In this document: piece after piece, positions 2,239-18,255 of the stretch | Layout: every line of letters begins with the position of its first letter | Position numbering within the stretch: the stretch's first letter is position 1 | Assembly (NCBI RefSeq): GCF_027912675.1 | Contig: NZ_CP115765.1 | Location: forward strand, 1 to 23,901 | From: Paracoccus sp. SCSIO 75233 | GTDB taxonomy: Bacteria > Pseudomonadota > Alphaproteobacteria > Rhodobacterales > Rhodobacteraceae | DNA length: 23,901 bases | Direction: 5' to 3' | Made by a program: the position numbers and the translations under genes | The notes under the pieces: model-generated | The model's database searches: none | What the model saw: only the letters and a program-made list of their open reading frames with translations | What the model was told of the DNA's origin: nothing

Positions 2239-2361
2239 GTGGCGCAAGAAACGTCACCGCATGATGAGAATGCATGCAGAGCTGAGAACGAGAGACGCCC
2301 TTGGGCCATTCGGCCCGGTCGAAGAAAAGAACGCACCAGATGTGTTGTACACGGCGGGTGA
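2239..2361 (+). CDS. Possible 40-residue leader peptide overlapping the dprA-like start
   Basis: A GTG at 2239 follows a strong purine-rich site (AAAGGGGAGGG at 2227-2237, although closely spaced) and opens a 40-codon frame that ends at 2361, inside the next gene in another frame. The dprA-like gene itself has no good ribosome site at its first ATG (2261) and no earlier in-frame start. The short frame may serve to load ribosomes for coupled translation. It resembles no protein I know and may not be real. Confidence 0.2.
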   Translation: MAQETSPHDENACRAENERRPWAIRPGRRKERTRCVVHGG

Positions 2362-2956
2362 TACCGCGCTTTTGACCGAAGGCTCGCGCGTGGCGATTGT
2401 CGGCTCAAGAAAAGCCACCCCGGACGGCATCAAACGAGCACAGGCTGTTACTCGTGCCTTGGTGCAGCAGGGTATTATTGTCGTCAGCGGCCTAGCCGAA
2501 GGCATCGACACAGTAGCGCATAGAACTGCGATAGAAGAGGGCGGGCGCACTATAGCGGTGCTCGGTACGCCCTTATCCAAGGCGTACCCGGCCACGAATG
2601 CCGGTCTACTTGAAGAGATCAAGCGTGATCACCTAGCGATTTCCCAGTTTCCCGAAGGTTATCCAGGCAAGAGCGAGAATTTCCCGCGCCGCAACCGGAC
2701 GATGGCGCTCATCTGCGATGCTACCATCGTGATCGAAGCAAGCGAGAAGAGCGGGACCCGCCACCAGGGATGGGAAGCTATCCGGCTTGGCCGCGATCTC
2801 TACCTGCTTGAGAACGTCGCAACCAATCCGAACCTAACTTGGCCGAAGCAGCTCATCGAGTACGGAGCACAAATCCTGCGCCGTGAAGACCTGCCCGATA
2901 TCTTGCTCGATATTCCGAACTACACTGCTGGGGGCGTTCGTGCCTTCGAGCTATGA
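2261..2956 (+). CDS. DprA/SMF-like Rossmann-fold protein
   Basis: A 231-residue protein covering only the SMF/DprA core. VAIVGSRKAT is at 44-53, SGLAEGID at 76-83, FPRRNR at 141-146 and EASEKSGT at 159-166, the ordered signature motifs of the family. Chromosomal DprA binds single-stranded DNA and loads RecA in transformation. This short form lacks the N-terminal SAM-like and C-terminal winged-helix domains of long DprA, so it belongs to the wider SMF/LOG (SLOG) group, whose members can also bind or process nucleotides. It overlaps the phosphoribosyltransferase gene by 17 bp, so the two should be co-translated. Its place between partition-type repeats makes it look like backbone rather than recent cargo. 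What it does on a plasmid is unknown. ssDNA protection on transfer is one possibility and nucleotide signalling another. Confidence 0.8.
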   Translation: MMRMHAELRTRDALGPFGPVEEKNAPDVLYTAGDTALLTEGSRVAIVGSRKATPDGIKRAQAVTRALVQQGIIVVSGLAEGIDTVAHRTAIEEGGRTIAVLGTPLSKAYPATNAGLLEEIKRDHLAISQFPEGYPGKSENFPRRNRTMALICDATIVIEASEKSGTRHQGWEAIRLGRDLYLLENVATNPNLTWPKQLIEYGAQILRREDLPDILLDIPNYTAGGVRAFEL

Positions 2957-3566
2957 ATATGGCACCTTCGCCAACTATTCCCCACGCGGTAGCTCGGAGC
3001 TGTCTGTAACCTCCCGAAAAGCCTGTGGCGCGATCAAGGCTGGCCGGGTCAATGTCATCGCCTCGGCCGTTCCGCACCTGCAAGTCTCGAAGGCGGACGC
3101 TCTGCGGCCTTTTCTCGGGCCGGATGTCACCTTGGTGCCGGTACCGCGCTCGGCGCCACTCCCCGATGGGGCGCTTTGGCCTGCCAAGGTGATCTGCGAC
3201 GTGTTGCACGAGCACGGGTTCGGCCAAGATGTACAAACCTATCTGAAAAGAACGAGGGCTATACCGCGTTCGTCAAATTCACCGGCGGCGGAAAGACCAC
3301 TTGTCCCTATTCACCTGGGAAGCATCGAGGCGGAGAGACCGTTCTTCGTGCCGAACAAGATCACCATCGTGGATGATGTTCTGACCATGGGACGGACAAG
3401 CTTTGCTTGCGCGGAACTCCTTCGGGCTGTCTGCCCGGATGCAGAAATTCGTATTTTTGCAATGATCCGGACGCAAGGCCTGCAAGAAGACATTGAGAAA
3501 ATTGTTGATCCGGCCATAGGCACCATCATTGGCTACCCATCCGGCAAGACCCACCGTGACCCATAA
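2940..3566 (+). CDS. ComF-like phosphoribosyltransferase
   Basis: A 208-residue type I phosphoribosyltransferase fold. The PRPP-binding loop reads ITIVDDVLTMGRTS at about residues 141-154, preceded by the strand VTLVPVPRS at 63-71, both typical of ComF-related enzymes. ComF proteins normally have an N-terminal zinc-finger region; no cysteine pairs are visible here, so this is a core-only form. GTG 2940 was preferred because GGGGG lies about 6 bases upstream; an earlier GTG at 2883 lies deep in the dprA-like gene. The stop of dprA falls at 2956, inside this gene. Pairing of a DprA-like protein with a ComF-like transferase echoes the competence genes, but substrate and reaction cannot be read from the sequence. 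Confidence 0.75.
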   Translation: MPSSYEYGTFANYSPRGSSELSVTSRKACGAIKAGRVNVIASAVPHLQVSKADALRPFLGPDVTLVPVPRSAPLPDGALWPAKVICDVLHEHGFGQDVQTYLKRTRAIPRSSNSPAAERPLVPIHLGSIEAERPFFVPNKITIVDDVLTMGRTSFACAELLRAVCPDAEIRIFAMIRTQGLQEDIEKIVDPAIGTIIGYPSGKTHRDP

Positions 3567-5191: not shown

Positions 5192-5221
5192 TTGCACAGA
5201 CTGGATCGGTCTGTTCAGAAT
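5192..5221 (+). promoter_or_regulatory. Candidate promoter with dyad for the ATPase-nuclease pair
   Basis: A perfect 6-bp dyad ACAGAC-N7-GTCTGT lies at 5196-5214, between a weak -35-like TTGCAC (5192-5197) and a -10-like CAGAAT (5216-5221), spacer 18 bp. A dyad in a promoter spacer suggests a repressor site. Promoter matches are weak, so this is tentative. Confidence 0.3.
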
Positions 5222-5251
5222 ACCGTGCAACATGCATTGAAAGCAGCCCTG

Positions 5252-6316
5252 ATGCTAAAAAGAGCCTCGTTCACGAATTTAACCAGCGTGCCAAGCGCGG
5301 AATGGCAGTTCTCTTCAGGCCTCAATGTCATTGTTGGCGAAAATGGTCTCGGAAAATCCCATGTACTGAAAGCGCTTTACTCGATCCTGAAATCCTTAAC
5401 TCCTGATGGTATTCCTGTTGATGGTACACAGTTAGAAAGGTTTGGAAAAAGCCAGCTTGAAAAGCGGATCGCAGATGAGTTGTCAGGCAATATGCGTCCT
5501 GACAGCCTTGGACGACTAGTGAAACGACAGCAAGGCCGCAACCGTGCCGAAATCTCTATTACATTCGAGGATAAGCGCCTGAATACCAGCTTCGGCTTTG
5601 CGACCAATTCTAGGTCCCAGGTGGAAATCTCCGACCTTCCGCATATTAGCTTGAACAAATCACCCGTTTTTATTCCGACACGTGAGCTCATCACCCTCTG
5701 CCCGTGGTTTGTTCCGCTCTTTGACTCCTATAATGTGCCTTTCGAGAAAAGCTGGCGCGATACTGTCATGCTGCTCGGGGCCCCCAGCCTTCGGGGCCCC
5801 CGAGAGACAAAGGTCCGCGAATTCCTCTCCCCTATCGAAGCCGCGATGGGCGGCAAGGTGGAGGTTGACGCAAATGGGCGTTTCTTCCTGAAGGTGAATG
5901 GCGGCAAGATGGAAGCCGCCCTCGTTGCTGAGGGCCTACGCAAGTTCGCAATGCTCGCGCGGCTAATTAGCACTGGTATCCTTCTCGAACAAGGATATCT
6001 GTTCTGGGACGAACCAGAGACCAACCTCAATCCCAAGCTGATCCGCGTCCTAGCTCAAGTGATTGTCGGATTGGCCGATCAAGGTATTCAGGTCTTCATC
6101 GCGACACACTCTGTGTTTCTGCTGCGTGAAATCTCCATTCTTACCGATGGCAGGAAGAAACCCAATTCCCGTTATTTCGCACTGGCCGCTTCGGGCGATG
6201 AAGAGGTTTCACATCTGGAGCAAGCCGACACGATCGATGCGCTAGAAACGCTTGTACTTCTCGACGAAGAACTGCGGCAATCCGAACGATACTTGGATGC
6301 TCAAGAAAATGGCTGA
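5252..6316 (+). CDS. AAA/ABC-type ATPase (OLD-like), candidate defence component
   Basis: A 354-residue ATPase of the AAA_15/AAA_21 (SMC/ABC-like) class. Walker A is GENGLGKS at 29-36, the signature-like segment is AEGLRKFAML at 226-235, Walker B is LFWDEPETNLNP at 250-261, and the switch histidine is H286 in IATHS. ATG 5252 begins the usual strand (MLKRASFTNL); an upstream TTG extension to 5192 would cross the putative promoter. It overlaps the next gene by 8 bp. ATPases of this build act with a partner nuclease in OLD, PARIS, Septu and Gabija phage-defence systems, usually sensing phage DNA or proteins. Here the partner is a small PD-(D/E)XK protein rather than TOPRIM or HNH, so it does not match those systems directly. 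Defence is inferred from architecture. Confidence 0.8.
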   Translation: MLKRASFTNLTSVPSAEWQFSSGLNVIVGENGLGKSHVLKALYSILKSLTPDGIPVDGTQLERFGKSQLEKRIADELSGNMRPDSLGRLVKRQQGRNRAEISITFEDKRLNTSFGFATNSRSQVEISDLPHISLNKSPVFIPTRELITLCPWFVPLFDSYNVPFEKSWRDTVMLLGAPSLRGPRETKVREFLSPIEAAMGGKVEVDANGRFFLKVNGGKMEAALVAEGLRKFAMLARLISTGILLEQGYLFWDEPETNLNPKLIRVLAQVIVGLADQGIQVFIATHSVFLLREISILTDGRKKPNSRYFALAASGDEEVSHLEQADTIDALETLVLLDEELRQSERYLDAQENG

Positions 6317-6824
6317 TGTCACGCTTGACGAAGGGCTCCTTCGTTTCGAATTTAAAGACGTTGACTTTGCCGAGCAGTATGATGGCTGGCGCCATCATCG
6401 AAATGTTTTTTCATCTGCTTGTGGCGGAGCAAAGGCAGTAGATTTTGTTGTAGGCAAGGGTAACGTGATCTGGCTTATCGAAGTTAAGGATTATCGTCAT
6501 CACCGGCGGGACAAGACAATCTCGCTTTGGGACGAGATTGCCATCAAAGTCCGCGATACGATGGCCGGTCTCGTGAGCACAAAATTTATTGGAGTTGATG
6601 ATAATGAGCGACGGACTTCGCGGACGGTCCTTGGCAAGAGGACACTTCACGTCGCCCTACATCTCGAGCAGACCAAAAACCCTAGCAGACTATTTCCCCA
6701 AGCTTTCAATCCCGCGAATGTTCGCTTGAAATTGAAACAGAACTTGCGGTTCGCAGACCCACATCCGGTGGTCTTTGACCGAACAGATTTCCCAGCCCAG
6801 CTCGGCCGGGTCACCAGCATCTAA
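6309..6824 (+). CDS. Small PD-(D/E)XK nuclease-like partner of the ATPase
   Basis: A 171-residue protein. The segment AKAVDFVV followed by IWLIEVKDY gives D45, E58 and K60, the D-Xn-ExK core of the PD-(D/E)XK nuclease fold on adjacent strands, with W28-R29-H30-H31 just before. The rest is basic and shows no further domain I recognise. ATG 6309 lies within the last codons of the ATPase gene (8-bp overlap), so the two proteins are probably made in fixed ratio and may form a complex. The likely job is DNA or RNA cleavage controlled by the ATPase. No family name is offered. Confidence 0.6.
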   Translation: MADVTLDEGLLRFEFKDVDFAEQYDGWRHHRNVFSSACGGAKAVDFVVGKGNVIWLIEVKDYRHHRRDKTISLWDEIAIKVRDTMAGLVSTKFIGVDDNERRTSRTVLGKRTLHVALHLEQTKNPSRLFPQAFNPANVRLKLKQNLRFADPHPVVFDRTDFPAQLGRVTSI

Positions 6825-7997: not shown

Positions 7998-8199
7998 ATT
8001 CGACGAACGCTTCGACGCGGGCGAAGACATGTCCGCCCATGTCGATTGGTCAAAGGCGCGCCGCCTCAATTTCGAGGCTAAGCGGGTGAACGTGGATTTC
8101 CCGACCTGGGTCGTCGCCGGTCTGGACCGGCAGGCCGCGAAGCTCGGCATCACCCGTCAGGCGCTGATCAAGATGTGGATTGCCGAGCGGTTGCAGTAG
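7984..8199 (+). CDS. BrnA/CopG-like ribbon-helix-helix antitoxin, apparently orphan
   Basis: A 71-residue protein. The N-terminal half (MKATEFDERFDAGEDMSAHV) is the acidic toxin-contact region. The second half (KRVNVDFPTWVVAGLDRQAA through LIKMWIAERL) is the ribbon-helix-helix DNA-binding domain typical of BrnA/CopG antitoxins. AGGAG lies about 10 bases before ATG 7984; a longer in-frame start at 7930 lacks such a site. The cognate BrnT RNase is expected just upstream, but only a short frame (7908-7997) is there. It may be a solitary antitoxin that protects against chromosomal BrnT, or a leftover regulator. Confidence 0.72.
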   Translation: MKATEFDERFDAGEDMSAHVDWSKARRLNFEAKRVNVDFPTWVVAGLDRQAAKLGITRQALIKMWIAERLQ

Positions 8200-8323
8200 C
8201 GTTCTCAAACACCAAAGGTTTTGACGGTCTGTTTTCCGTCACCACCTCTAGGAGAGGGACAAATATTATTTTGAAGTACTGCCAGCGTTGCTGGGGTTGC
8301 TGAAATCAGAACACTGTGAACCC
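8200..8323. other. Gap between convergent genes with two small hairpins
   Basis: Between the ends of brnA and the helicase gene lie two perfect small dyads: TGACGG-N8-CCGTCA (8222-8241) and CCAGC-GTT-GCTGG (8282-8294). Neither is followed by a clear T run, so termination is only a possibility. No gene is visible. Confidence 0.4.
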
Positions 8324-11300
8324 TTACACTTGGAATTTTGTGTCAATGTGCGCGGCCACATCTAAGCTTAGCTTCCGGTTCTCAAAGGTTTCAATCAAAC
8401 GCCCTGGAAAATGCTTTTCGTACCAGGCTATCTTGCGTTCACGATGATCCTGATACATATCCGAAGACATCATACCCCAATGCTCCCAGAACCATGTTTC
8501 ACCCTGCCAAGTTACAGTAAAATCAGGTAGATACATTGTGCCATCCGGCGCACGTAATAAGACCTCATAGCTGAAGGGAATACCGCGCTCATGAAGCAAA
8601 TTCGCGATCACAAGCTCTGATTTCGAACGTACCATATCCCCGCTGAGAGCTTGATGAATGAGGCCTTCCTCATACCAGCCTTTGCGGTTTATCAGCTCAT
8701 CCGGAACAGCACGGAAAAAGCCATCAAACAGGGAGGAATTGATTAAGCCGATCTGTGCATTCTCAGGGCGGCGTGCTGACAGCAAGGTGGATATATCGCC
8801 CTGCACGAGAAGCGTACAATGCTGCCGGGCCCGCGTTAGCGCTGTGTAAAGAAGCTCTGAGGACAACGACCGCCCTTTTGATTTCGGTACAACCACGTAG
8901 GTATGATTGAATTCGCTGCCCTGTGCTTTGTGAACAGAGATCGCATACGCAAGCTCTAGGTTAGCCTCGACGCTTTCAGAACCGCCTTTTCCAGTCAAGT
9001 TTCCTCCATACCCTACCCCGAGATGATCCTTCCGTTCAAATTTCACCTGAAACCGCTTGAGGCGCGACAGGAACTTCTTATCAAAACCGTGCTTTTGAAC
9101 GAAGCCAATCTCGCCGTTGAACACCTCAATGCGCTCCGATTTTCCTGTACTGAAATTATAGGCCCAGAGTGGGTTTGACTGCGGCCTATTGCGATACTGA
9201 ATGACCTTGTCGTAGAGCGCTATGCCATCGAGAAGGCCGTGGCGGCTGATAACACCCACCGCGATACGGCCTTGGATTGCTTCATTCAAAGCCTCTACAC
9301 CATGGAGCTCACCGCGATGCGGTGTTAAAACTTGGTATTTCTCCGGCTTCCATTCGAATGCTGCGCGCCAGAGTTCAAACGGCTTTTCGCTATCAAGGGT
9401 CGCACCCGTGTGATCGGCCATCTCGCGTTCAACCGCACGGATCAAAGTGTCAGAAATATCAGCAGGATCGTCCCAATAAGTCACACGCAAGTCGGCATCA
9501 ACATCACCGCCCCTGTGGACCTTTGACAGTAGTTCCTCCCCTTCAGATGATGTGCTCTCGCCGTCATCGCGCGCATTTGCACTGATGAAAAGTTCAGCGA
9601 AGCGTAAGATTGCGGTGCCCTTACCTTCGATTCTATTCTCAAGTTGCCTTAGGTTATGCGTCAGGCGCGCGATGCTGTCCGGCTTATTCTTTGTGAGCCA
9701 TTGGATCGTATCAGCGAAGACACGTCCTCGCCCAATCGGAGGCAACTGGTTGGGATCACCAACCAGGATAAAACGACGCACCTGCCGCCAATCAATGGCG
9801 CGCACAAGGCTTGCCATCAGACCAAGATCGAGCATGGAAGCTTCATCAACGATGATCGTTCCGCTGCCCTCACGCTTACCACCTGCGCGTTTAAAAGTGA
9901 GGTTGTCGTTAAGCCAACCGCCCCTAGCCAAGAACGAGTGTACGGTTGATGTCGCGACGCGCTCGATAGCGCGTTCATGCATCTTGGCGCGTACACGGTC
10001 AGAGGCCTTACCGGTAGGCGCAAGAACGGTAAGCGGTGCTCCATCACCCTCGGTTTGACGCACGGCGCGAATAATTGCGCAAATAGCTGATGTCTTGCCG
10101 GTTCCAGCAGCACCGGTGACCACAGAGAACGGTCTCCGAAAAACCGCTGCACAAGCCTCTGCTTGAGCAGATACAGCTTCCTCATAGGTTTCGCGGGCTT
10201 TTTCCAGAAGCGGGCTCTTTGTATCCCTGACTTCGGCGCGCCAGTCATCATCCGTGAATGGACGTGCGAGCGAAATGTCCGCGCGGCCCCCGAGCCGCGT
10301 TAGCTCCTCCTCAACCGCCCGTTCGTCCTCATAGACGGGTTTCCAATACAGCCACAGTCGATCGGCCTCGCTGCGCAGAACAAGAGCTTCTTCGAGCTCA
10401 TCTCGATCAACCTCAAAATAACGCTCTGTAAAAACGGTGGATTTCCATTCGGGAAGTTTGGCCAAGCGGGTATTAATTTCTGCAAGCACAGCATCCGCCG
10501 CCCGGAAAGTCTGGTTTGGTTCCCGCCGCAACTGATCAACACAAAGGGCACGAAGGCGGCGTGGATCGTCAAATTCCATGTCGGCAAGCGTAGGGCCGCC
10601 GAGCTCCGGCGACGGCAACACCCCACGGTCGACGGTGCCCCAAGGAATCGTGTCGTCGGGGTTATCTCCAACATAACCCTCACAAAGCAAATACGGGTTT
10701 TCGGATATTTCCGCGATGTCGGCGGGCAACCCATGTGCAGCACGAGTAGTTCGTTCTTCACTGAGGATGCGGTCGATTTGCGCCGGATCAAGGTCAAGTC
10801 GGGCAATGACATCTCGCAAAAGTTTTCGCCCAGTCTCAGGCTTCAATTTCCACTGCCGGGATAGACGCTGGAGCGGTTTGCCGAACAAACCGAACTCCAT
10901 AACCTCCTTGCCATCGTCAACTGCTGAGAAAAAGAGCTGGTGCGCCTCTTTGGAGCGCCCCTTCTCCATCATCGCCTTGGCAGGCAAGATCGCCGCTTCA
11001 GCAGAGAGTATCCGCATGACATTGAGGAGGCCGGGATAGAGCCCGCGCTTGCTCCAAAGCTCGGCAATGCAGCTGAGTATCCAGCCAGCGCGCTCATCCC
11101 AGTCTTCGCTGGTATCTCCTAATTCCTTGAGTTCATAGACAGCGCTGAGAAACTGCTCCAACAACCCAATTGCATCATCATTGGTCAGGTGGCGCGCACC
11201 GTACTTGCAGGTTCGGGGGTTCTCCGGAAAAATGGAAATTCTCTTCAAAGTCTCGGGGTCATCACGGTAGCGATGATAAGGGAGCCGGAGCCCCTCATTC

Positions 11301-11932
11301 GGGTAGTGCGAACTGATATTACGAGCCCAAATCATCCCCCCGGCATAGCGCTCTCGAACATGGTCATTGACCTCCCCATAGGTAAGGCGATCACCAATCT
11401 TCTTGACGCGCGATACACCGATCAGGGCGTAGCGTGGGCTTTCCTCGTCGGACAAAGGGTTTGAGTAGTTGGCGTAGTAAAAAATCAGGCTCTTATCGTT
11501 TTCGATCTCGGCAAAAAACTCGTCAGCATTTGCCGAGCGTCGATCATTGTCGAGCCGTCCGCCTTCATCATAGACGTCGTCGCCGTACATCGCTTCATAG
11601 GGCCAGACGCAGGCCGTCGCCTCAGGGATGTCCCACTCCGTGCGGACCGCACCGCCATTGAAGAAATCAGGCGGGTTTGAATATCCTCGGATCGGGTCGG
11701 ACCCAAACGCGTTTACGCTATAGATGCAGGGAGGTATTTGAGCTCCGGAGAGCTTTGCGATCGGTGCGCCTGCATTTTCTGTCTCAAGCGCAAGATTGCG
11801 CTCACGGGCCACAACATCCCCAGGAAAAGAATGCATACCAACACAGTAAGTATTGCAGTCTGGTTTCTCGCAAATCCGGCCATTCCAGCCGTCGTCATGC
11901 CACGCAAGCCGGGCCGTAAGATGTACCGTCAA
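8324..11932 (-). CDS. RecD-like SF1B helicase with C-terminal nuclease-like domain
   Basis: A 1,202-residue motor protein. Residues 1 to about 250 form a conserved N-terminal domain of unknown function, and 250-590 are largely helical. The helicase core has Walker A GAAGTGKTS at 607-615, Walker B IIVDEAS at 694-700, motif III GDPNQLPP at 726-733, then AYAISVHKAQGSEF near 996-1009 and LLYTALTRAR near 1028-1037, the RecD/TraA order. The C-terminal part (E near 1107, LPDFTV near 1136, FWEHWG near 1149) resembles the PD-(D/E)XK/Vsr-like nuclease tail found on some UvrD-type helicases. It starts at TTG 11932 with AGGAGG 5 bases upstream; no better ATG is nearby. It is last in the operon, 18 bp after the methyltransferase gene, and probably supplies translocation and cleavage. 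Confidence 0.85.
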   Translation of the reverse strand: MTVHLTARLAWHDDGWNGRICEKPDCNTYCVGMHSFPGDVVARERNLALETENAGAPIAKLSGAQIPPCIYSVNAFGSDPIRGYSNPPDFFNGGAVRTEWDIPEATACVWPYEAMYGDDVYDEGGRLDNDRRSANADEFFAEIENDKSLIFYYANYSNPLSDEESPRYALIGVSRVKKIGDRLTYGEVNDHVRERYAGGMIWARNISSHYPNEGLRLPYHRYRDDPETLKRISIFPENPRTCKYGARHLTNDDAIGLLEQFLSAVYELKELGDTSEDWDERAGWILSCIAELWSKRGLYPGLLNVMRILSAEAAILPAKAMMEKGRSKEAHQLFFSAVDDGKEVMEFGLFGKPLQRLSRQWKLKPETGRKLLRDVIARLDLDPAQIDRILSEERTTRAAHGLPADIAEISENPYLLCEGYVGDNPDDTIPWGTVDRGVLPSPELGGPTLADMEFDDPRRLRALCVDQLRREPNQTFRAADAVLAEINTRLAKLPEWKSTVFTERYFEVDRDELEEALVLRSEADRLWLYWKPVYEDERAVEEELTRLGGRADISLARPFTDDDWRAEVRDTKSPLLEKARETYEEAVSAQAEACAAVFRRPFSVVTGAAGTGKTSAICAIIRAVRQTEGDGAPLTVLAPTGKASDRVRAKMHERAIERVATSTVHSFLARGGWLNDNLTFKRAGGKREGSGTIIVDEASMLDLGLMASLVRAIDWRQVRRFILVGDPNQLPPIGRGRVFADTIQWLTKNKPDSIARLTHNLRQLENRIEGKGTAILRFAELFISANARDDGESTSSEGEELLSKVHRGGDVDADLRVTYWDDPADISDTLIRAVEREMADHTGATLDSEKPFELWRAAFEWKPEKYQVLTPHRGELHGVEALNEAIQGRIAVGVISRHGLLDGIALYDKVIQYRNRPQSNPLWAYNFSTGKSERIEVFNGEIGFVQKHGFDKKFLSRLKRFQVKFERKDHLGVGYGGNLTGKGGSESVEANLELAYAISVHKAQGSEFNHTYVVVPKSKGRSLSSELLYTALTRARQHCTLLVQGDISTLLSARRPENAQIGLINSSLFDGFFRAVPDELINRKGWYEEGLIHQALSGDMVRSKSELVIANLLHERGIPFSYEVLLRAPDGTMYLPDFTVTWQGETWFWEHWGMMSSDMYQDHRERKIAWYEKHFPGRLIETFENRKLSLDVAAHIDTKFQV

Positions 11933-11950
11933 AATCGCCTCCTATTAACT

Positions 11951-14900
11951 CTACAGCAGCGCATCCTGCCGGTCATCTGCCTTGCCACCTTTGCCCGATC
12001 CTTTAGTATCAAAGGCTCCTGAAGCCTGTAGCGCATCCACCGTGATGATCGGACCATCACAAATGTGTTGAAGCAGATCAGCCTGATGGGGCTCCAGTGT
12101 GACCAAGCGGCCCAAGATGTGCAGAACGTTCAAGAGTTCAGACGTGTATTCAGCCAGCCATTGATCTGAATGGATACTTTCCAGCGAGGACGGGGGACGA
12201 CGCTCACCAATGGTGGTGCGGGTGCGGTCCTTCTTGCGATAACTGAACCAATGGAGAAGAACCTGCTTCCCGGAAACCTCGTATTCCCAGACAGCAGCTG
12301 GCACGTTGTCGATGAAACCGTCACCAACATGTAGGCGCTGTTTCGCAGGATCATGTGAGATTTCGTTCGGCATGAGGTCGGGATCGGTTGGGATAGTGCC
12401 ATCCTTTGGGATCGTCGGCCCTTGCCCCTTGGGCAAGCGTGGTAGGCTGGCGGGGCGGCCTTTTGACGGATCGGTGAAACGGTCCCCAAAAGTGTGGAGC
12501 CAGATGACTTCTTCTCCGATCGCTACAGCTTCCCGGAACAGCTCTCCATCGGACGTGATAGGGATGCGCAAGCCAGGCTGAACAAGATCATCCTTAAAGG
12601 ATGCCGTATAGGCGGGATGTGCTGCAACTGCGGCAAGATAAGCCATGACGTCAGGGCCAGTGACTTTTTCACCTGTCGCTTCTTGTACCGCGCTAACGAA
12701 CATTGGCTTGATATTAGGCTCGGCAGCTTTTGCATCAGCCCAAAGAGGAAATACCCGGCCCCCGAAAGAGCCCTTGTAGTGATCAAGGTCACAAACTGCG
12801 CCAGCAAAAGTCAGCGCGGGACCATTGCTAGGTGAGGATCGATTCAGTGCCGTCAGAAAAACTTGGCTATCTGAGTAGTTTTCCCAAAGAGTGGGGTTTG
12901 ATTGATTGATCAACCTACCATCTGGGATGATCCATTGCCGGTCAAAAGAACGAAAGCAGTACCGAATGGGCGGAATACAGGCATTCTGATCAACAGCAAC
13001 CGGACCTGAACGGAAGGGGTGACCGAACAGCCCACTTTTGAGGGGTTTGTCTATGTGTTTGTCCCCTGGCTTTCCTTTCCGCATATGCGGGTGAAAATCG
13101 CTGGCCTTCTTCTTCGCATCTTTCTGAGTGACAAGTGCATTCCAGCGATCTTCTAGAGTCGCCTTATCAGGTGCAATCACCCAAACACGACCTGGCATAA
13201 CGCCCGATCCATCATAGGTGAACAGCTCTTCGAGCGGGACAAAGTCCGCCCAAGCCCCTATGTTTTCAGGCAAGAAAGATGCGCGAGGTTGGGTCGCACA
13301 TTCCTGCCACGCCGGGCCTTCAAGGGTAATGGCCTTCAAATCCTCGAACTTGTCCGTTCTGTCACCAGAGCAGAGAACACGATAGCGAACGCGCGCAGGT
13401 TGATCTTTCGAGGCTTTCGTTTTCCGCAACGCCATGACGATGCAAACTGGCTGCTGCACATCCTGAAATATGCGGCTCGATACGGGCGGTTGATGGCCCT
13501 CGGGTGTGCAGTCGATCACCCAGATTTCATCTGCCTGCGCGCGAAGATCAGCGCGCATTTTCTGAAATCCTGGGCCATTTAAGAAACCAGCCACAGTGAT
13601 AAAGCTGATCACCCCTGTCTGGTCGCGCTCACGCTGTCCATCGAACTCTGCCGGATCACCGTCACCAAAGACTTTCCACGTCGCCCACCTCCAGAAATAC
13701 ACATATAGGTTACGCAAATGCTTGGTGTGCGTCCCAACATTCCACTCTGTTGGAGGCATCCAGTCCATCAACGGCCCTGGCCGGTTGGCGCTGCCGGTTT
13801 CCACCCATCCCCCAAGTCCCGCCGCCTGGTTCTTATAGGGCGGGTTCCCGATCACAACCGTGATCTTCTCCTGTTTCTTTATCTCGTTTGCTTGCCTTCG
13901 GGATTCCCCGAGGGGCATCAAAATTTGCGGGATATACTCGTCTTCCAGGTACGGGTTGCCCAAAGTGTCGGTCACATAGAGACGCATCGGGTCGGCGTGA
14001 CCGGCAAAGTCATCGCCAACCAGATCGCGTAGCTCTGCCAACAAGCGCAGCTGGGCAACGGCGAATGGTCCGAACTGAAGCTCAAAACCGATCAAACGCG
14101 GGATCGCCGCCTCGATCACACCCGGCACCGCACCGGGTCCCTGATCCTCTTCCGTGGCCTCTGCGATCCTGCGTAAAATGCCCAGAAGATATGTCCCTGT
14201 ACCTGTGGCCGGATCAGCTACTGTGACGTTCTGGTCTCCCAAGCCATCAACCAAACCGAAATAGGCGCTTGATCGCAAAGCCTCGTCCACCAGACGCACC
14301 ATAGACATAACAACCTCTGGCGGCGTGTAATAAGACCCAGTCTTGCGCCGCAGCTCGTCATCATAGGCCTTCAGAAACTTCTCATAGAAATACAGCCACG
14401 CCTCGGGGTCGCCCTTGCTGATCACGTCCCATTCCACGGCATCGAGAACCCGGGTCAGGGTCGCAAGCGACGTTTTCAGAGTCGCCTGATTTTCGGCATC
14501 ATCGGTTAGCAAGCGAAGTGCCGTGCCGATCAACGTGTTGGTCTGGCGCAGTTCTTTCGCCACGCGATCAAGGCCATCCTTGAGCGGTATTTTCCGCGCA
14601 CGCGCCATCAACATACCGAATGTCACCGCCTGAGCGTATCCATCGGCAAAAGCTGCATCGGTCGCATTGGGGAAGAGCAGCTTGCGCCAGTCTGTTGCCA
14701 AATTGGTCAAGGGACCAGACCCCTCGCCAAGCTGCTCTGTCACCTCTTCGCGCAGCAACCTGCACAGCCGGGCAGTCATCTCGGCCAGCGCGAGCGCAGT
14801 TTTTGGCGGTTGGGGGTCCCATTGGAAGAAGTCAGAGAACCGGGCAAGCAGCTCAGGCGGGGCATTTAACTTGTTGCCCGACGTTTCAATGTCACCGTCA

Positions 14901-15316
14901 AGCTGAATAATTTTCCCTACCAGTTCGCCGTCCTGCCAAAGACTGAAAGCGTTGCCATCGGTATAGATCAGATTGGGCAACGTCTTGAGCTTTTCCCATT
15001 GCCCCTGATCATGCTTATCAGTGAAACGGCGCGGGTCAGCTCCTTTGCCCGGTGCTTTGACCTCGACGAAACCGACTAGCATGGATTTGAACGTAACCGC
15101 GTAATCCGGGCGGGTCTTGAGCTCCGCCAGAGACGTCTCCCCAACTGGCACAACGGTACCGGAGGGTAGACCTGCCAGCTCAGCCATCTGGGTAATGAGA
15201 GTTTCGAGGGGTGCGCGGAGCTGATCTTCCGGCGCTCCCGACACGCCAGCGTTTTTCAGCTTAGACTTGGCGGTAGCACCAAAATCCGCGACGATCTCCA
15301 TAAGTGTCTTGCTCAA
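11951..15316 (-). CDS. Type ISP-like restriction-modification protein (nuclease-methyltransferase-specificity)
   Basis: A 1,121-residue protein. Near the N-terminus RPDYAV and GFVEVKAPG give D71, E85 and K87, a PD-(D/E)XK nuclease core. A helical coupler follows (about 170-320). The N6-adenine methyltransferase has GSYYTPPEVV at 327-336, SAM motif DPATGTG at 368-374 and catalytic NPPY at 491-494. The C-terminal 500 residues should be the DNA-recognition domain; the last part (DGFIDNVPAAVWEYEVSGKQ) looks like the type ISP C-terminal domain. Type ISP enzymes such as LlaBIII carry a helicase between nuclease and methyltransferase. None is present here, and a separate helicase follows in the operon. 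It starts at TTG 15316 with GAGGG 7-8 bases upstream; ATG 15301 lacks a site. The gene lies 24 bp behind a perfect 8-bp palindrome. Confidence 0.85.
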   Translation of the reverse strand: MSKTLMEIVADFGATAKSKLKNAGVSGAPEDQLRAPLETLITQMAELAGLPSGTVVPVGETSLAELKTRPDYAVTFKSMLVGFVEVKAPGKGADPRRFTDKHDQGQWEKLKTLPNLIYTDGNAFSLWQDGELVGKIIQLDGDIETSGNKLNAPPELLARFSDFFQWDPQPPKTALALAEMTARLCRLLREEVTEQLGEGSGPLTNLATDWRKLLFPNATDAAFADGYAQAVTFGMLMARARKIPLKDGLDRVAKELRQTNTLIGTALRLLTDDAENQATLKTSLATLTRVLDAVEWDVISKGDPEAWLYFYEKFLKAYDDELRRKTGSYYTPPEVVMSMVRLVDEALRSSAYFGLVDGLGDQNVTVADPATGTGTYLLGILRRIAEATEEDQGPGAVPGVIEAAIPRLIGFELQFGPFAVAQLRLLAELRDLVGDDFAGHADPMRLYVTDTLGNPYLEDEYIPQILMPLGESRRQANEIKKQEKITVVIGNPPYKNQAAGLGGWVETGSANRPGPLMDWMPPTEWNVGTHTKHLRNLYVYFWRWATWKVFGDGDPAEFDGQRERDQTGVISFITVAGFLNGPGFQKMRADLRAQADEIWVIDCTPEGHQPPVSSRIFQDVQQPVCIVMALRKTKASKDQPARVRYRVLCSGDRTDKFEDLKAITLEGPAWQECATQPRASFLPENIGAWADFVPLEELFTYDGSGVMPGRVWVIAPDKATLEDRWNALVTQKDAKKKASDFHPHMRKGKPGDKHIDKPLKSGLFGHPFRSGPVAVDQNACIPPIRYCFRSFDRQWIIPDGRLINQSNPTLWENYSDSQVFLTALNRSSPSNGPALTFAGAVCDLDHYKGSFGGRVFPLWADAKAAEPNIKPMFVSAVQEATGEKVTGPDVMAYLAAVAAHPAYTASFKDDLVQPGLRIPITSDGELFREAVAIGEEVIWLHTFGDRFTDPSKGRPASLPRLPKGQGPTIPKDGTIPTDPDLMPNEISHDPAKQRLHVGDGFIDNVPAAVWEYEVSGKQVLLHWFSYRKKDRTRTTIGERRPPSSLESIHSDQWLAEYTSELLNVLHILGRLVTLEPHQADLLQHICDGPIITVDALQASGAFDTKGSGKGGKADDRQDALL

Positions 15317-15339
15317 TGCCTGCCCTCAAAATTCTCTGA

Positions 15340-15359
15340 ATACTGCCAGTAGGCAGTAT
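15340..15359. promoter_or_regulatory. Perfect palindrome before the methyltransferase gene (operator or attenuator)
   Basis: ATACTGCC-AGTA-GGCAGTAT is an 8-bp perfect dyad filling the 51-bp gap between the regulator and the methyltransferase gene. On the minus strand TTGACC (15367-15362) directly precedes it and could be a -35 element, putting the dyad over the promoter spacer and -10. This suggests separate, repressible expression of the methyltransferase, or a hairpin controlling its TTG start. Confidence 0.5.
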
Positions 15360-15367
15360 CTGGTCAA

Positions 15368-16450
15368 CTATTTCACAACACGTAGCTGTTGTCCCTTAAT
15401 TGGACGGACTGGATCAGCCGCCAATCCGAAAGTCAGTTTCTCAACCTCATCTACCGGCAAATGCAGCGCCCTTGCGATGGTCTCCTTCGTCTTGCCTTCT
15501 TGCCACAGATGATCAAGCACCTGCTTCCAGACGCGCGACTTGTCACGCTCTGTACCGTCCGGCTCACCCGTCCTGTAACCGCGCTGTGTGAGATCAATAC
15601 ACATAGAACGGTATTGCCAGTCAGTCAGAAGCCCCAACCGATGCACTCGGTAGGCCAAGGCCATTGCTGACACACGCCAGCGCTTCTTGAGCTTCAGAAT
15701 CAGGTGGACAGACGGCGCATGCGGAATGCGCCCGCGTACATCCTCTGAAGGCATCAGGAAGCTTGACGCAAAGGCATTCGCTTCTCGCTCCACATCTCGT
15801 CCATGCAGCGTGTTTCCCCCAGCATGCAGGATCAGATGCCCGAGTTCGTGAGCCGCATCCATCACGCCATGCTCGGCTGTCTTCATCGTGTTGAGGAAAA
15901 TGTAAGGGATCCCGTCCTGCCAAAACGAAAATGCATCCACATTGAGCGTTTCTTCGGCGAGCGAAAAAACACGTACTCCCTTAGCCTCAAGAAGCGCAAT
16001 CATGCTGGCGATCGGCTTCTCACCAAGGCCCCACGCCTGCCTAAGCGCCCGTGCAGCGGCTGCCGGGTCTGGCTCATAGCCAATATCAGGTAACACAGGC
16101 TCTGGCAGATTGAACTCCTGTGAAAGCCATTGCCCCACATCCACACCTATCTCACCGGCTGCACGCGCTGCTTCGCGCTCTCGAACGCTTGTGCGCTTGA
16201 GGCTGCGAAAACTCACGGCTTCAGCTGGAAGCTCGTAGGTATCCCCTACAAAGAAAAACTCGACGGGATAGCGCGTTGCCTTCGCCAAAGCATTGATCGT
16301 TTCTTCTGTCGGTTCACTTTGCCCTGTCTCGATGCGTGACAGTTGGACTCGCGAGATCCCTGCGGCTTCTGCCACCTTGATTGCGGTCATCTTTCTGCGT
16401 TTTCGAGCGAGGATCAGGCGAAGGTGGTTGAATGGTTCGTGCCGTGTCAT
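15368..16450 (-). CDS. XRE-HTH / ImmA-IrrE metallopeptidase regulator
   Basis: A 360-residue two-domain regulator. Residues 10-65 form an XRE/Cro helix-turn-helix (KVAEAAGISRVQLSRIETGQSEPT core). Residues about 130-240 are the ImmA/IrrE zinc peptidase with HELGH at 201-205 and the downstream glutamate in REANAFAS at 222-229. Proteins of this COG2856 type repress mobile-element genes or cleave repressors in response to damage or invasion. ATG 16450 overlaps the stop of the upstream gene (ATGA). The C-terminal ~120 residues are basic and not recognised. As the only DNA-binding regulator in the operon, it is the likely reader of the dyads at 17,088-17,130 and 15,340-15,359 and may switch the restriction genes on or off. 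Confidence 0.88.
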   Translation of the reverse strand: MTRHEPFNHLRLILARKRRKMTAIKVAEAAGISRVQLSRIETGQSEPTEETINALAKATRYPVEFFFVGDTYELPAEAVSFRSLKRTSVREREAARAAGEIGVDVGQWLSQEFNLPEPVLPDIGYEPDPAAAARALRQAWGLGEKPIASMIALLEAKGVRVFSLAEETLNVDAFSFWQDGIPYIFLNTMKTAEHGVMDAAHELGHLILHAGGNTLHGRDVEREANAFASSFLMPSEDVRGRIPHAPSVHLILKLKKRWRVSAMALAYRVHRLGLLTDWQYRSMCIDLTQRGYRTGEPDGTERDKSRVWKQVLDHLWQEGKTKETIARALHLPVDEVEKLTFGLAADPVRPIKGQQLRVVK

Positions 16451-17076
16451 TTCCGTGAAATCTTGATGTCGAAGTCGATGGCGTCATCATCCGAAGAGCC
16501 GTCTTCTTCAAGGGCATCAAAATCACTACCATCGTGCACAAAGATACGCTCGATGAATTCGGAAAATTCACCGCCCTTGATAAGGGCATGAGTCACTTCG
16601 ACGGCACCGTCCTGGGCGACCATCACATACCAGACCTCGACATCGAGCCCTTCGCCAGAATGGGTGGCCGGAACCACCTCCTCGATCAGATCAAATGCGC
16701 TGCCTTGGCTAAGGCGCTCAGACCCTGCGCCCTTGCGACTACGCGCCTGCGGCAGATCAGATAGGCTGCAAGCGACATCCACATTCTGATACAGAACAAT
16801 GACCTTACGATCCGGGTGACGAACGCCATTGGTGCCATAAGACTGGTCAATAACCCAACCACGTTTCAAAAACGTAGCCCGAAGCTCACGAGTGCCGTAC
16901 TGGTAAGCGAGCTGCCCGGCTCCGTTCGCGGGAAAGAGGGGGGATGATCCGGTCGCGTGCATACTGGCAGCAACATCCCGGATATCCAGAATATCCTGCC
17001 TGTCCATGCCCAACTCAGCAAGCCGACGATCAACGTCAATGTCGTCGATATAGATTTTAGCAACCATTCGGGGCAT
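16447..17076 (-). CDS. Unknown protein, first gene of the minus-strand operon
   Basis: A 209-residue protein I do not recognise. The N-terminal part (MPRMVAKIYIDDIDVDRRLAEL) is compact and mixed alpha/beta. The middle contains HPDRKVIVLYQNVDVACS, a well-formed strand region. The C-terminus is strongly acidic (EEDGSSDDDAIDFDIK). ATG 17076 is chosen because GGAG lies 6 bases upstream; ATG 17088 is an in-frame alternative but lies in the dyad. It overlaps the regulator gene by 4 bp, so the two are tightly coupled. An acidic tail and first position directly behind the operator would suit an antitoxin-like or inhibitor role, or a target/partner of the metallopeptidase. There is no direct evidence for either. 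Confidence 0.7.
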   Translation of the reverse strand: MPRMVAKIYIDDIDVDRRLAELGMDRQDILDIRDVAASMHATGSSPLFPANGAGQLAYQYGTRELRATFLKRGWVIDQSYGTNGVRHPDRKVIVLYQNVDVACSLSDLPQARSRKGAGSERLSQGSAFDLIEEVVPATHSGEGLDVEVWYVMVAQDGAVEVTHALIKGGEFSEFIERIFVHDGSDFDALEEDGSSDDDAIDFDIKISRK

Positions 17077-17087
17077 GGGATTCTCCA

Positions 17088-17137
17088 TGTTACATTTTCT
17101 TGCCCTCAATGATGGCAAAAAAATGTAACATGGGCAA
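17088..17137 (-). promoter_or_regulatory. Operon promoter with a 17-bp inverted-repeat operator
   Basis: TGTTACATTTTCTTGCC (17088-17104) and GGCAAAAAAATGTAACA (17114-17130) are inverted arms with one mismatch in 17, around a 9-bp centre. On the minus strand TTGCCC (17137-17132) and CATCAT (17114-17109) are spaced 17 bp and could be the promoter, with one arm in the spacer and the other over the start site. This is a classic repressor layout, and the HTH-ImmA protein of the operon is the obvious candidate. The dyad is certain; the promoter elements are tentative. Confidence 0.65.
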
Positions 17138-17205
17138 GTCTCATCTTGCGAACTCAGAGCCGCAACAACCACAGGCGGGCCTTAAATCGACAAAATGGCT
17201 GAGCT

Positions 17206-17278
17206 CGCCCCTCAGGGGCGTATGCGCGAAGCGCCGGGCCTGTTGGCGGGTGGCCTCAAGGCTGCCCGCCGACAGGTC
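17206..17278. other. Cluster of three adjacent hairpins
   Basis: Three dyads follow each other: CGCCCCT-C-AGGGGCG (17206-17220), GCGC-GAA-GCGC (17224-17234), and a long stem at 17239-17276. The long stem has arms CCTGTTGGCGGG and CCCGCCGACAGG, continues inward through two wobble pairs and GCC/GGC to a TCAA loop, and gives 17 pairs in all. It lies between the end of ardC and the restriction operon promoter. It may insulate the two transcripts, encode a structured RNA, or act as a single-strand initiation site. Confidence 0.5.
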
Positions 17279-17370: not shown

Positions 17371-18255
17371 TTACTCAGCGGCCATCCGGTCAGCCTGCGC
17401 GGTGCGCTCCATGATGTAATCCACGGCCTTCTGCGCCTCGGACGCGGCGCGGAAAATCGCGCGGCTGTCTTCCTTCATCGCCTCAAGCCATCCTTCGACA
17501 TAGGCCGCGCTCTGATCGAATTCAGGCTCCACCCCGATCTGCGCGCAAAGCATGCAGTTTCCTATCTCCGCGACCAGTTCCTCGAAGGCGTAGGCCTTGC
17601 GATCATTGAACCGGCCCAAACGGTCCAGCCGCTTTGTCGCCCCTGTCCAGTGGGTCAACTCATGCGCCAAGGTGCCGTAATATCCTGCGGCCCGGTGAAA
17701 GGTCGCGATTGGCGGCATGTGGATGCGGTCGGTCTTGATGTTGTAGTAGGCGCGCGGCTCCTCGGTGCTGTCGATCTGCGCGCCACTCGCGGCAAAGAAC
17801 GCTTCCAACGCGGGATCGGCCAAGGTGCCAAGATCGCGGGGCGGATCGGGCAGGGTGTAGAATTCAGCGGGCAAGCCCTCGATCTGATCGGCGTTGAACA
17901 CGCGGTAGGCCTTGGCATAGGGGATCTGGCGTTCCTCGCCGTTCTCGTCCTCGCGCTCGACGGTGCCGTATTTCACCACGGTTGCGGATTTCTCGCCCTT
18001 GCGGACATGGCCCCCAAGCTGCTTGGCTTGATTGAACGTCATCCAGCGGGCTGAACTGTAATCTTTCGCCATCGCTGTCGCCCAAAGCATCAGGATGTTG
18101 ATGCCCCGATAGGCTTCGCCGTTAAACCGTTCCGGCAGGCTGACCGATGCCCCGCCGCCAGTCCACGGCTTGTGCCAGGGCGGTGTTCCCGCCTCGATCT
18201 GCGCGATGATCTGATTGGTGACATGGGAATAAACGTCAAACTTCTCTGCGGTCAT
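17371..18255 (-). CDS. ardC: ArdC-type anti-restriction protein
   Basis: A 294-residue protein of the ArdC family. The N-terminal domain (YSHVTNQIIAQIEAGTPPWHKPW and GINILMLW at 51-58) is the single-strand DNA-binding part. The C-terminal domain is a zinc metallopeptidase with HELTHW at 198-203 and EELVAEIG at 225-232. ArdC proteins enter with or protect incoming plasmid DNA and counter host restriction, and some bind ssDNA during conjugation. The ATG at 18255 is preceded by AAGGAGGG, a strong ribosome site. The length is normal for the family. It sits between the restriction operon and the mobilization block, on the same strand as the operon but separated by terminator-like hairpins. Upstream is a ~600-bp leader without genes. 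Confidence 0.92.
   Translation of the reverse strand: MTAEKFDVYSHVTNQIIAQIEAGTPPWHKPWTGGGASVSLPERFNGEAYRGINILMLWATAMAKDYSSARWMTFNQAKQLGGHVRKGEKSATVVKYGTVEREDENGEERQIPYAKAYRVFNADQIEGLPAEFYTLPDPPRDLGTLADPALEAFFAASGAQIDSTEEPRAYYNIKTDRIHMPPIATFHRAAGYYGTLAHELTHWTGATKRLDRLGRFNDRKAYAFEELVAEIGNCMLCAQIGVEPEFDQSAAYVEGWLEAMKEDSRAIFRAASEAQKAVDYIMERTAQADRMAAE

What the first reader, a model, noticed from the sequence alone, without database searches (positions are those of the whole stretch)
8324..17137. Four-gene operon: unknown protein, HTH-metallopeptidase, type ISP-like methyltransferase, RecD-like helicase-nuclease
Tight spacing (4-bp overlap, 51 bp, 18 bp), one operator at the front and complementary activities argue for a single 8.8-kb system. 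It does not match the gene lists I know for BREX, DISARM, Pgl, type I or type ISP. It looks like a regulated restriction system with a separate motor.
Basis: partly seen in the sequence, partly recalled or inferred. Interest (0 to 1): 0.85.

Follow-up and report, generated by a model that had tools for sequence, protein, structure and literature searches.

The report
Plasmid cassette of three phage-defence modules
The four genes look like three recognisable anti-phage modules stacked behind one control site on a small plasmid (a toxin-antitoxin pair, a one-protein restriction enzyme, and a helicase-nuclease), and the helicase-nuclease, seen elsewhere beside quite different restriction systems, is the part worth following up.

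Summary
In detail: four tandem minus-strand genes (gaps -4, 51, 18 bp) behind a palindrome with 24-nt arms. The reading as one new system does not. PADLOC models name three modules: RosmerTA (RmrT-RmrA), a type IIG restriction-methyltransferase, and PDC-S68, a RecD-like helicase with a C-terminal PD-(D/E)XK-type domain. The methyltransferase has no motor and resembles TaqII/TaqIII, not type ISP; only its recognition domain is ISP-like. In the homologous loci opened the modules do not co-occur: methyltransferase or RmrT near the helicase in 0 of 28 loci, methyltransferase or helicase near RmrTA in 0 of 11, RmrTA or helicase near the methyltransferase in 0 of 18. Similar palindromes precede 9 of 11 lone RmrTA pairs, so the operator is probably RosmerTA's own. 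Related plasmids carry other cargo here. The surprising part is the helicase: relatives lie in operons with type I, III, IIG and BREX genes, and its N-terminus resembles YTH/EVE modified-base readers, weakly. I read it as a portable effector of methylation-based defences; function is untested.

The parts
17085..17133 (.). palindromic operator (24-nt arms) just upstream of rmrT
   Evidence: only palindrome reaching score 15 in the window; similar palindromes before 9 of 11 rmrT homologues
16447..17076 (-). RmrT, presumed toxin of RosmerTA, 209 aa
   Evidence: PADLOC RmrT PDLC03932 201.7 bits; AF2 model mean pLDDT 73.8, weak resemblance to PD-(D/E)XK folds
15368..16450 (-). RmrA, HTH + ImmA/IrrE (M78) antitoxin/repressor, 360 aa
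   Evidence: PADLOC RmrA 510.7 bits; Pfam HTH_3 and Peptidase_M78; HELGH at 201
15317..15367 (-). rmrA-methyltransferase gap with an 8-bp perfect hairpin (attenuator, operator or chance)
11951..15316 (-). single-chain restriction-methyltransferase of the TaqII/TaqIII (type IIC/IIG) kind: PD-(D/E)XK-type nuclease + N6-adenine MTase + ISP-like target recognition domain, 1121 aa
   Evidence: PADLOC REase_MTase_IIG 1270.9 bits; Pfam Type_ISP_C and N6_Mtase; motifs shared with 13 aligned relatives including the Thermus aquaticus p11 enzyme
8324..11932 (-). PDC-S68: N-terminal reader-like domain (about 1-270), RecD-like helicase (about 375-1065), C-terminal PD-(D/E)XK-type domain (about 1100-1190), 1202 aa
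   Evidence: PADLOC PDC-S68 1699 bits; Pfam; conserved residues; AF2 and structure comparison of residues 1-590
8190..17206 (.). extent of the cargo cassette, as seen against NZ_CP054605.1 (left edge) and NZ_CP086935.1 (right edge)
   Evidence: homology ends on the left at 8189 (L086), 8180 (L088) or 7896 (L087, L089) and resumes on the right at 17206 (L089) or 17224 (L086, L087); L088 has no match on the right

Best explanation
The 8.9-kb block is a plasmid-borne defence cassette made of three modules. (1) RosmerTA: RmrA binds the palindrome, represses the operon and neutralises RmrT; phage infection disturbs RmrA and frees RmrT to stop the host. (2) A TaqII-like one-protein restriction enzyme: it methylates an adenine in a short asymmetric site on host DNA and cuts unmethylated entering DNA a little outside the site, without a motor. 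(3) PDC-S68: a RecD-like translocase with a terminal nuclease domain that unwinds and degrades foreign DNA, entering at cut ends or at bases recognised by its N-terminal reader-like domain. Shown here: gene identity by model, conserved motifs, the operator, that the modules occur apart in the loci opened, and that the cassette site is variable. Inferred: every activity, co-transcription of all four genes, and any cooperation between modules 2 and 3.
For: PADLOC and Pfam identities. RmrT directly followed by RmrA in 11 of 11 loci opened, none with methyltransferase or helicase. Methyltransferase without the other modules in 18 of 18 loci, 27-60% identical to the window's; on the six plasmids opened it is annotated 'type ISP restriction/modification enzyme' with neither neighbour. 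Helicase without methyltransferase or RmrT in 28 of 28 loci. In one family member (G762) helicase and methyltransferase are on different contigs. Operator-like palindromes before lone RmrTA pairs, 9 of 11 at 14 or more of 20 matches, against 13 of 300 control stretches. The cassette edges coincide with the ends of backbone homology to related plasmids with other cargo.
Against: RmrT cluster P0123 (95%) and methyltransferase cluster P0169 (79%) both list a longest contig of 15,228 bp and the same source tag: perhaps one contig, so RosmerTA and the restriction gene may travel together in close relatives that I could not open. The tight spacing favours one transcript; the sigma-70 scan found no site in either gap, but none before rmrT either and no more than in shuffles (4 found, mean 4.7), so it says little. 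Sampling is limited: 2 of 10 RmrT plasmid records, 6 of 22 methyltransferase plasmid records and 2 of 8 helicase plasmid records were opened, several methyltransferase loci are distant relatives, and some contigs end close to the gene. A first palindrome scan with stricter rules found only 1 of 7 homologues, and one with shorter stretches 7 of 11.
Confidence: 0.78

Rival explanations
1. One integrated system: RmrA, through the shared operator, sets expression of restriction enzyme and helicase (as C-proteins do for type II systems, recalled), and the helicase is the motor or effector of the restriction enzyme, with RmrT as last-resort toxin.
For: Gaps of -4, 51 and 18 bp, one strong operator, cassette borders against NZ_CP054605.1 that enclose these four genes, possible RmrT + methyltransferase contig.
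Against: No co-occurrence in 28 helicase, 18 methyltransferase and 11 RmrTA loci; similar operators before lone RmrTA pairs; the methyltransferase kind works without a motor (PMC5587805, passages).
Confidence: 0.15
2. PDC-S68 is a modification-dependent (type IV-like) nuclease: its YTH/EVE-like domain binds modified bases of phage DNA that escapes the neighbouring restriction system, and the helicase-nuclease destroys it. It thus serves as second layer for many unrelated methylation-based systems.
Confidence: 0.4
3. PDC-S68 is a RecBCD-like clean-up machine: it needs no modified base, enters at double-strand ends made by whichever restriction enzyme is next door, and degrades the fragments.
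Against: Also found inside a BREX locus, where restriction by cutting is not established (recalled); no hit to the partner panel in 9 of 27 loci (of these L006 has Ietas-like genes, by similarity to L007, and L015 a weak type IIG match); does not explain the highly conserved N-terminal domain.
Confidence: 0.35

Closest known systems
RosmerTA (RmrT/RmrA) toxin-antitoxin defence
   Same: Two-gene order, HTH + ImmA/IrrE antitoxin with HELGH, RmrT model match, own palindromic operator
   Different: This RmrT (PDLC03932 kind) matches no Pfam family at E 0.1; the Gordonia phage Kita RmrT is reported to depolarise membranes (PMC10440598, passages); I did not compare the two, so this toxin's target is unknown
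TaqII/TaqIII Thermus-family type IIC/IIG enzymes
   Same: About 1100 aa, nuclease + N6-MTase + ISP-like recognition domain, plasmid-borne, act alone; 37.9% identity to the Thermus aquaticus p11 enzyme
   Different: On an alphaproteobacterial plasmid; target site unknown; sits behind RosmerTA
Type ISP (LlaGI, LlaBIII)
   Same: Methyltransferase and target-recognition domain
   Different: No ATPase domain found; 1121 against 1406 and 1578 residues of the solved chains
PDC-S68 (PADLOC single-gene candidate)
   Same: Full-length match, 1699 bits
   Different: Nothing beyond the candidate label found in the paper searches made; context and N-terminal fold described here
BREX, DISARM
   Same: Relatives of the helicase lie inside BREX loci (L014, L021) and beside DrmD-like genes (L022, L024)
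   Different: No BREX or DISARM protein among the four genes; the methyltransferase has only weak partial matches to PglX, MAD2 and DrmMI

Membership tests
RosmerTA | RmrA: HTH + ImmA/IrrE metallopeptidase with HExxH | tested here: met
RosmerTA | adjacent RmrT gene | tested here: met
   RmrT model 201.7 bits, 4-bp overlap
RosmerTA | toxicity neutralised by RmrA; phage protection | not testable with these tools
   needs expression and plaque assays
Type IIC/IIG, TaqII-like | one chain of about 1100 aa with nuclease, N6-MTase and recognition domain, active-site motifs present | tested here: met
Type IIC/IIG, TaqII-like | cleaves near and methylates its site on its own | not testable with these tools
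   reported for TaqIII (PMC5587805, passages), not for this protein
Type ISP | SF2 helicase-like ATPase in the same chain | tested here: not met
   no ATPase family up to E 0.1; definition from the abstract of PMC4666363 (listing)
Type ISP | Type_ISP_C recognition domain | tested here: met
   PF18135 229.3 bits
PDC-S68 | full-length match to the PADLOC model | tested here: met
   1699 bits over 1-1198
RecD2 / RecD equivalogs | NCBIfam cut-off 500 (RecD2) or 310.15 bits (RecD) | tested here: not met
   211.3 and 191.1 bits
EVE/YTH reader | sequence match to Pfam EVE or YTH | tested here: inconclusive
   none in 25 members, but distant members can be missed; EVE profile probability 0.7%, P 0.08
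EVE/YTH reader | PUA-like fold with base pocket | tested here: inconclusive
BREX / DISARM / Pgl | core genes in the operon | tested here: not met
   none among the four proteins beyond weak partial matches of the methyltransferase

The most novel reading that the evidence does not exclude
PDC-S68 is a portable YTH/EVE-like reader + RecD-type helicase + nuclease that unrelated methylation-based defences (type I, type III, TaqII-like and Eco57I-like type IIG, BREX) take up as a common effector, and that uses the local methylation state of DNA to decide what to degrade; in this plasmid it has been placed, with its methyltransferase, under the repressor of a toxin-antitoxin pair, so that loss of RmrA would raise restriction and free the toxin together.
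Probability: 0.25. Interest if true: 0.78.

Novelty: new variant of a known kind. Interest (0 to 1): 0.42.

Why it matters
As a four-gene system the find is mostly a stack of known modules. It matters for two reasons. First, it shows how a 24-kb plasmid backbone swaps whole defence cassettes at one place. Second, it draws attention to PDC-S68: a large family (829 proteins at E <= 1e-100 among the 7996 candidates scored) with a highly conserved N-terminal domain, no function assigned in anything I found, and neighbours from at least four different methylation-based defences. If it reads DNA modification, it would be a shared effector across systems now treated as separate.
Full report
Observation. 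The window is a 23,901-base contig (G000:C9). On the minus strand four ORFs follow each other with a 4-bp overlap, 51 bp and 18 bp. A palindrome with 24-nt arms lies at 17085-17133; nothing else in the window reaches the score of 15 that I asked for.

Identity of the parts. PADLOC models match all four over almost their whole length: RmrT (201.7 bits), RmrA (510.7), REase_MTase_IIG (1270.9) and PDC-S68 (1699). Pfam adds HTH_3 and Peptidase_M78 for RmrA, N6_Mtase and Type_ISP_C for the methyltransferase and a superfamily 1 helicase core for the last protein, nearest to RecD and RecD2 though below their cut-offs. RmrT-RmrA is the RosmerTA pair; different RmrT toxins are reported to pair with an ImmA-domain antitoxin and to protect from phages (PMC10440598, passages).

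The methyltransferase. It has 1121 residues, a PD...EVK nuclease signature at 69-87, motif I at 368 and NPPY at 491; PD, ExK and NPPY are kept in 13 of 13 relatives aligned. No ATPase family was found, so it is not a type ISP enzyme, which carries an SF2 helicase-like ATPase (abstract of PMC4666363, search listing). It resembles TaqII and TaqIII, about 1100-residue type IIC enzymes whose recognition domain is like that of LlaGI and LlaBIII; recombinant TaqIII, purified, cleaves its site (PMC5587805, passages). A Thermus aquaticus plasmid enzyme is 37.9% identical. I take that record (plasmid p11, strain YT-1) to be the TaqIII plasmid from size and strain; this is inference.

Do the modules belong together? 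I compared the four proteins with every locus fetched (tblastn). Helicase loci: 24 from the genome collection, 2 plasmids and 2 class genomes; methyltransferase or RmrT in 0 of 28; RmrA in 1 (L023, where only a 66-residue helicase piece was matched and the RmrA gene is about 7 kb away). RmrTA loci: 11, RmrA next to RmrT in 11 of 11, methyltransferase or helicase in 0 of 11. Methyltransferase loci with wider flanks: 18, 27-60% identical, none with the other modules; two of them (L072, L073) have short contigs. The other methyltransferase hits were seen only with about 1.5 kb of flank and show no other module there. A DNA search of 394 genomes of the family found matches in 14, the window's own included; apart from it no genome had DNA matches to two modules at one place, though G762 has helicase and methyltransferase on different contigs. 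Against this: the RmrT cluster P0123 and the methyltransferase cluster P0169 give the same longest contig length, 15,228 bp, so RmrTA and methyltransferase may sit together in some close relatives; that contig was not open to me.

The operator. In 9 of 11 RmrTA loci without methyltransferase or helicase, the stretch before rmrT holds a palindrome with at least 14 of 20 pairs, centred 24-46 bases before the expected start (window: 18 of 20 at -34); 13 of 300 stretches drawn at random from ten of these loci reach 14. L081 and L083 missed. Two earlier runs were less favourable: 1 of 7 with stricter rules and 7 of 11 with stretches that cut off part of the site in some loci. L070, L113 and L114 are close relatives and not independent. 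I conclude that the operator is part of the RosmerTA module. Whether RmrA also governs the two genes behind it here is open; a hairpin lies in the 51-bp gap.

The cassette. Homology to related plasmids ends on the left at 8189 (NZ_CP054605.1), 8180 (NZ_CP045396.1) or 7896 (NZ_CP067128.1, NZ_CP086935.1) and resumes on the right at 17206 or 17224 in three of the four; NZ_CP045396.1 has no match on the right. There NZ_CP054605.1 carries a reverse transcriptase gene, a TIR-domain gene and a DEAD/DEAH helicase gene, and NZ_CP086935.1 AbiEii-like and N-6 methylase genes. The block behaves as exchangeable cargo between a tyrosine recombinase and WGR gene on one side and an ArdC-like gene on the other.

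The helicase family. Of 23 genome loci with a helicase ORF, 11 have, in the same direction and with gaps of at most 300 bases, genes of methylation-based defence: type I subunits (L001, L010, L012, L013, L016, and an HsdM-like gene in L017), type III Res (L004), an Eco57I-like type IIG gene (L011), BREX genes (L014, L021) and a DrmD-like gene (L024) (L001, L010, L012, L016 and L017 by similarity to the scanned ones). In L014 the helicase gene stands between pglXI and brxH in a run brxF-brxC-pglXI-helicase-brxH-pglZ-brxA, which I recall as the type III set. With a panel of such proteins 18 of 27 loci gave hits and 0 of 20 arbitrarily chosen chromosomal stretches did (panel drawn mostly from the same loci, so not unbiased; L023 was dropped). 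Among the nearest relatives of the window's protein, 79-81% identical, the contexts are type I, no recognised partner, a HATPase gene and Ietas genes: partners change quickly.

In print. Searches for PDC-S68 (0 papers), RosmerTA, RmrT/RmrA, type ISP with RecD-like helicase, EVE with RecD, PADLOC candidates and RecD-like accessory helicase-nucleases showed, in the titles and abstracts listed, no description of this four-gene set or of PDC-S68 as companion of these systems. A survey of BREX auxiliary effectors (PMC12839542, passages) has no occurrence of RecD in its main text and one of SF1 that I did not see. Only open-licence papers are held, so this is not proof of absence.

Verdict. Known modules in an unusual stack; the promiscuous, reader-like helicase-nuclease is the lead to follow.

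Noticed in passing
window 2261-3566: DprA-like and phosphoribosyltransferase-like genes match PADLOC ShosA (246 bits) and ShosT (69.5 bits): probably a ShosTA toxin-antitoxin defence pair on the backbone.
   Followed up: partly
window 5192-6824: AAA ATPase (374 aa) and 190-aa protein match the PADLOC candidate system HEC-02 (493 and 190 bits), so the plasmid carries further defence cargo.
   Followed up: partly
window 17371-18255: ArdC-like antirestriction protein (ArdcN + zincin-like peptidase) directly beside the restriction cassette.
   Followed up: no
L014:2546-19235: A BREX run brxF to brxA with the PDC-S68 gene between pglXI and brxH; L021 shows pglXI-helicase-brxH as well.
   Followed up: partly
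L006:640-11441 and L007:3154-13954: IetA- and IetS-like genes (scanned in L007), a ResIII-type helicase, PDC-S68 and a 115-aa ORF form one run, with nearly identical helicases in two genomes.
   Followed up: no
L022:10001-13522: The PDC-S68 gene is split into two ORFs in this Bacillota MAG; real break or assembly error unknown.
   Followed up: no
L119:5244-8545: The methyltransferase relative matches in two separate pieces, so its frame may be broken there.
   Followed up: no
window 15317-15367: Perfect 8-bp inverted repeat with 4-base loop between rmrA and the methyltransferase gene.
   Followed up: partly
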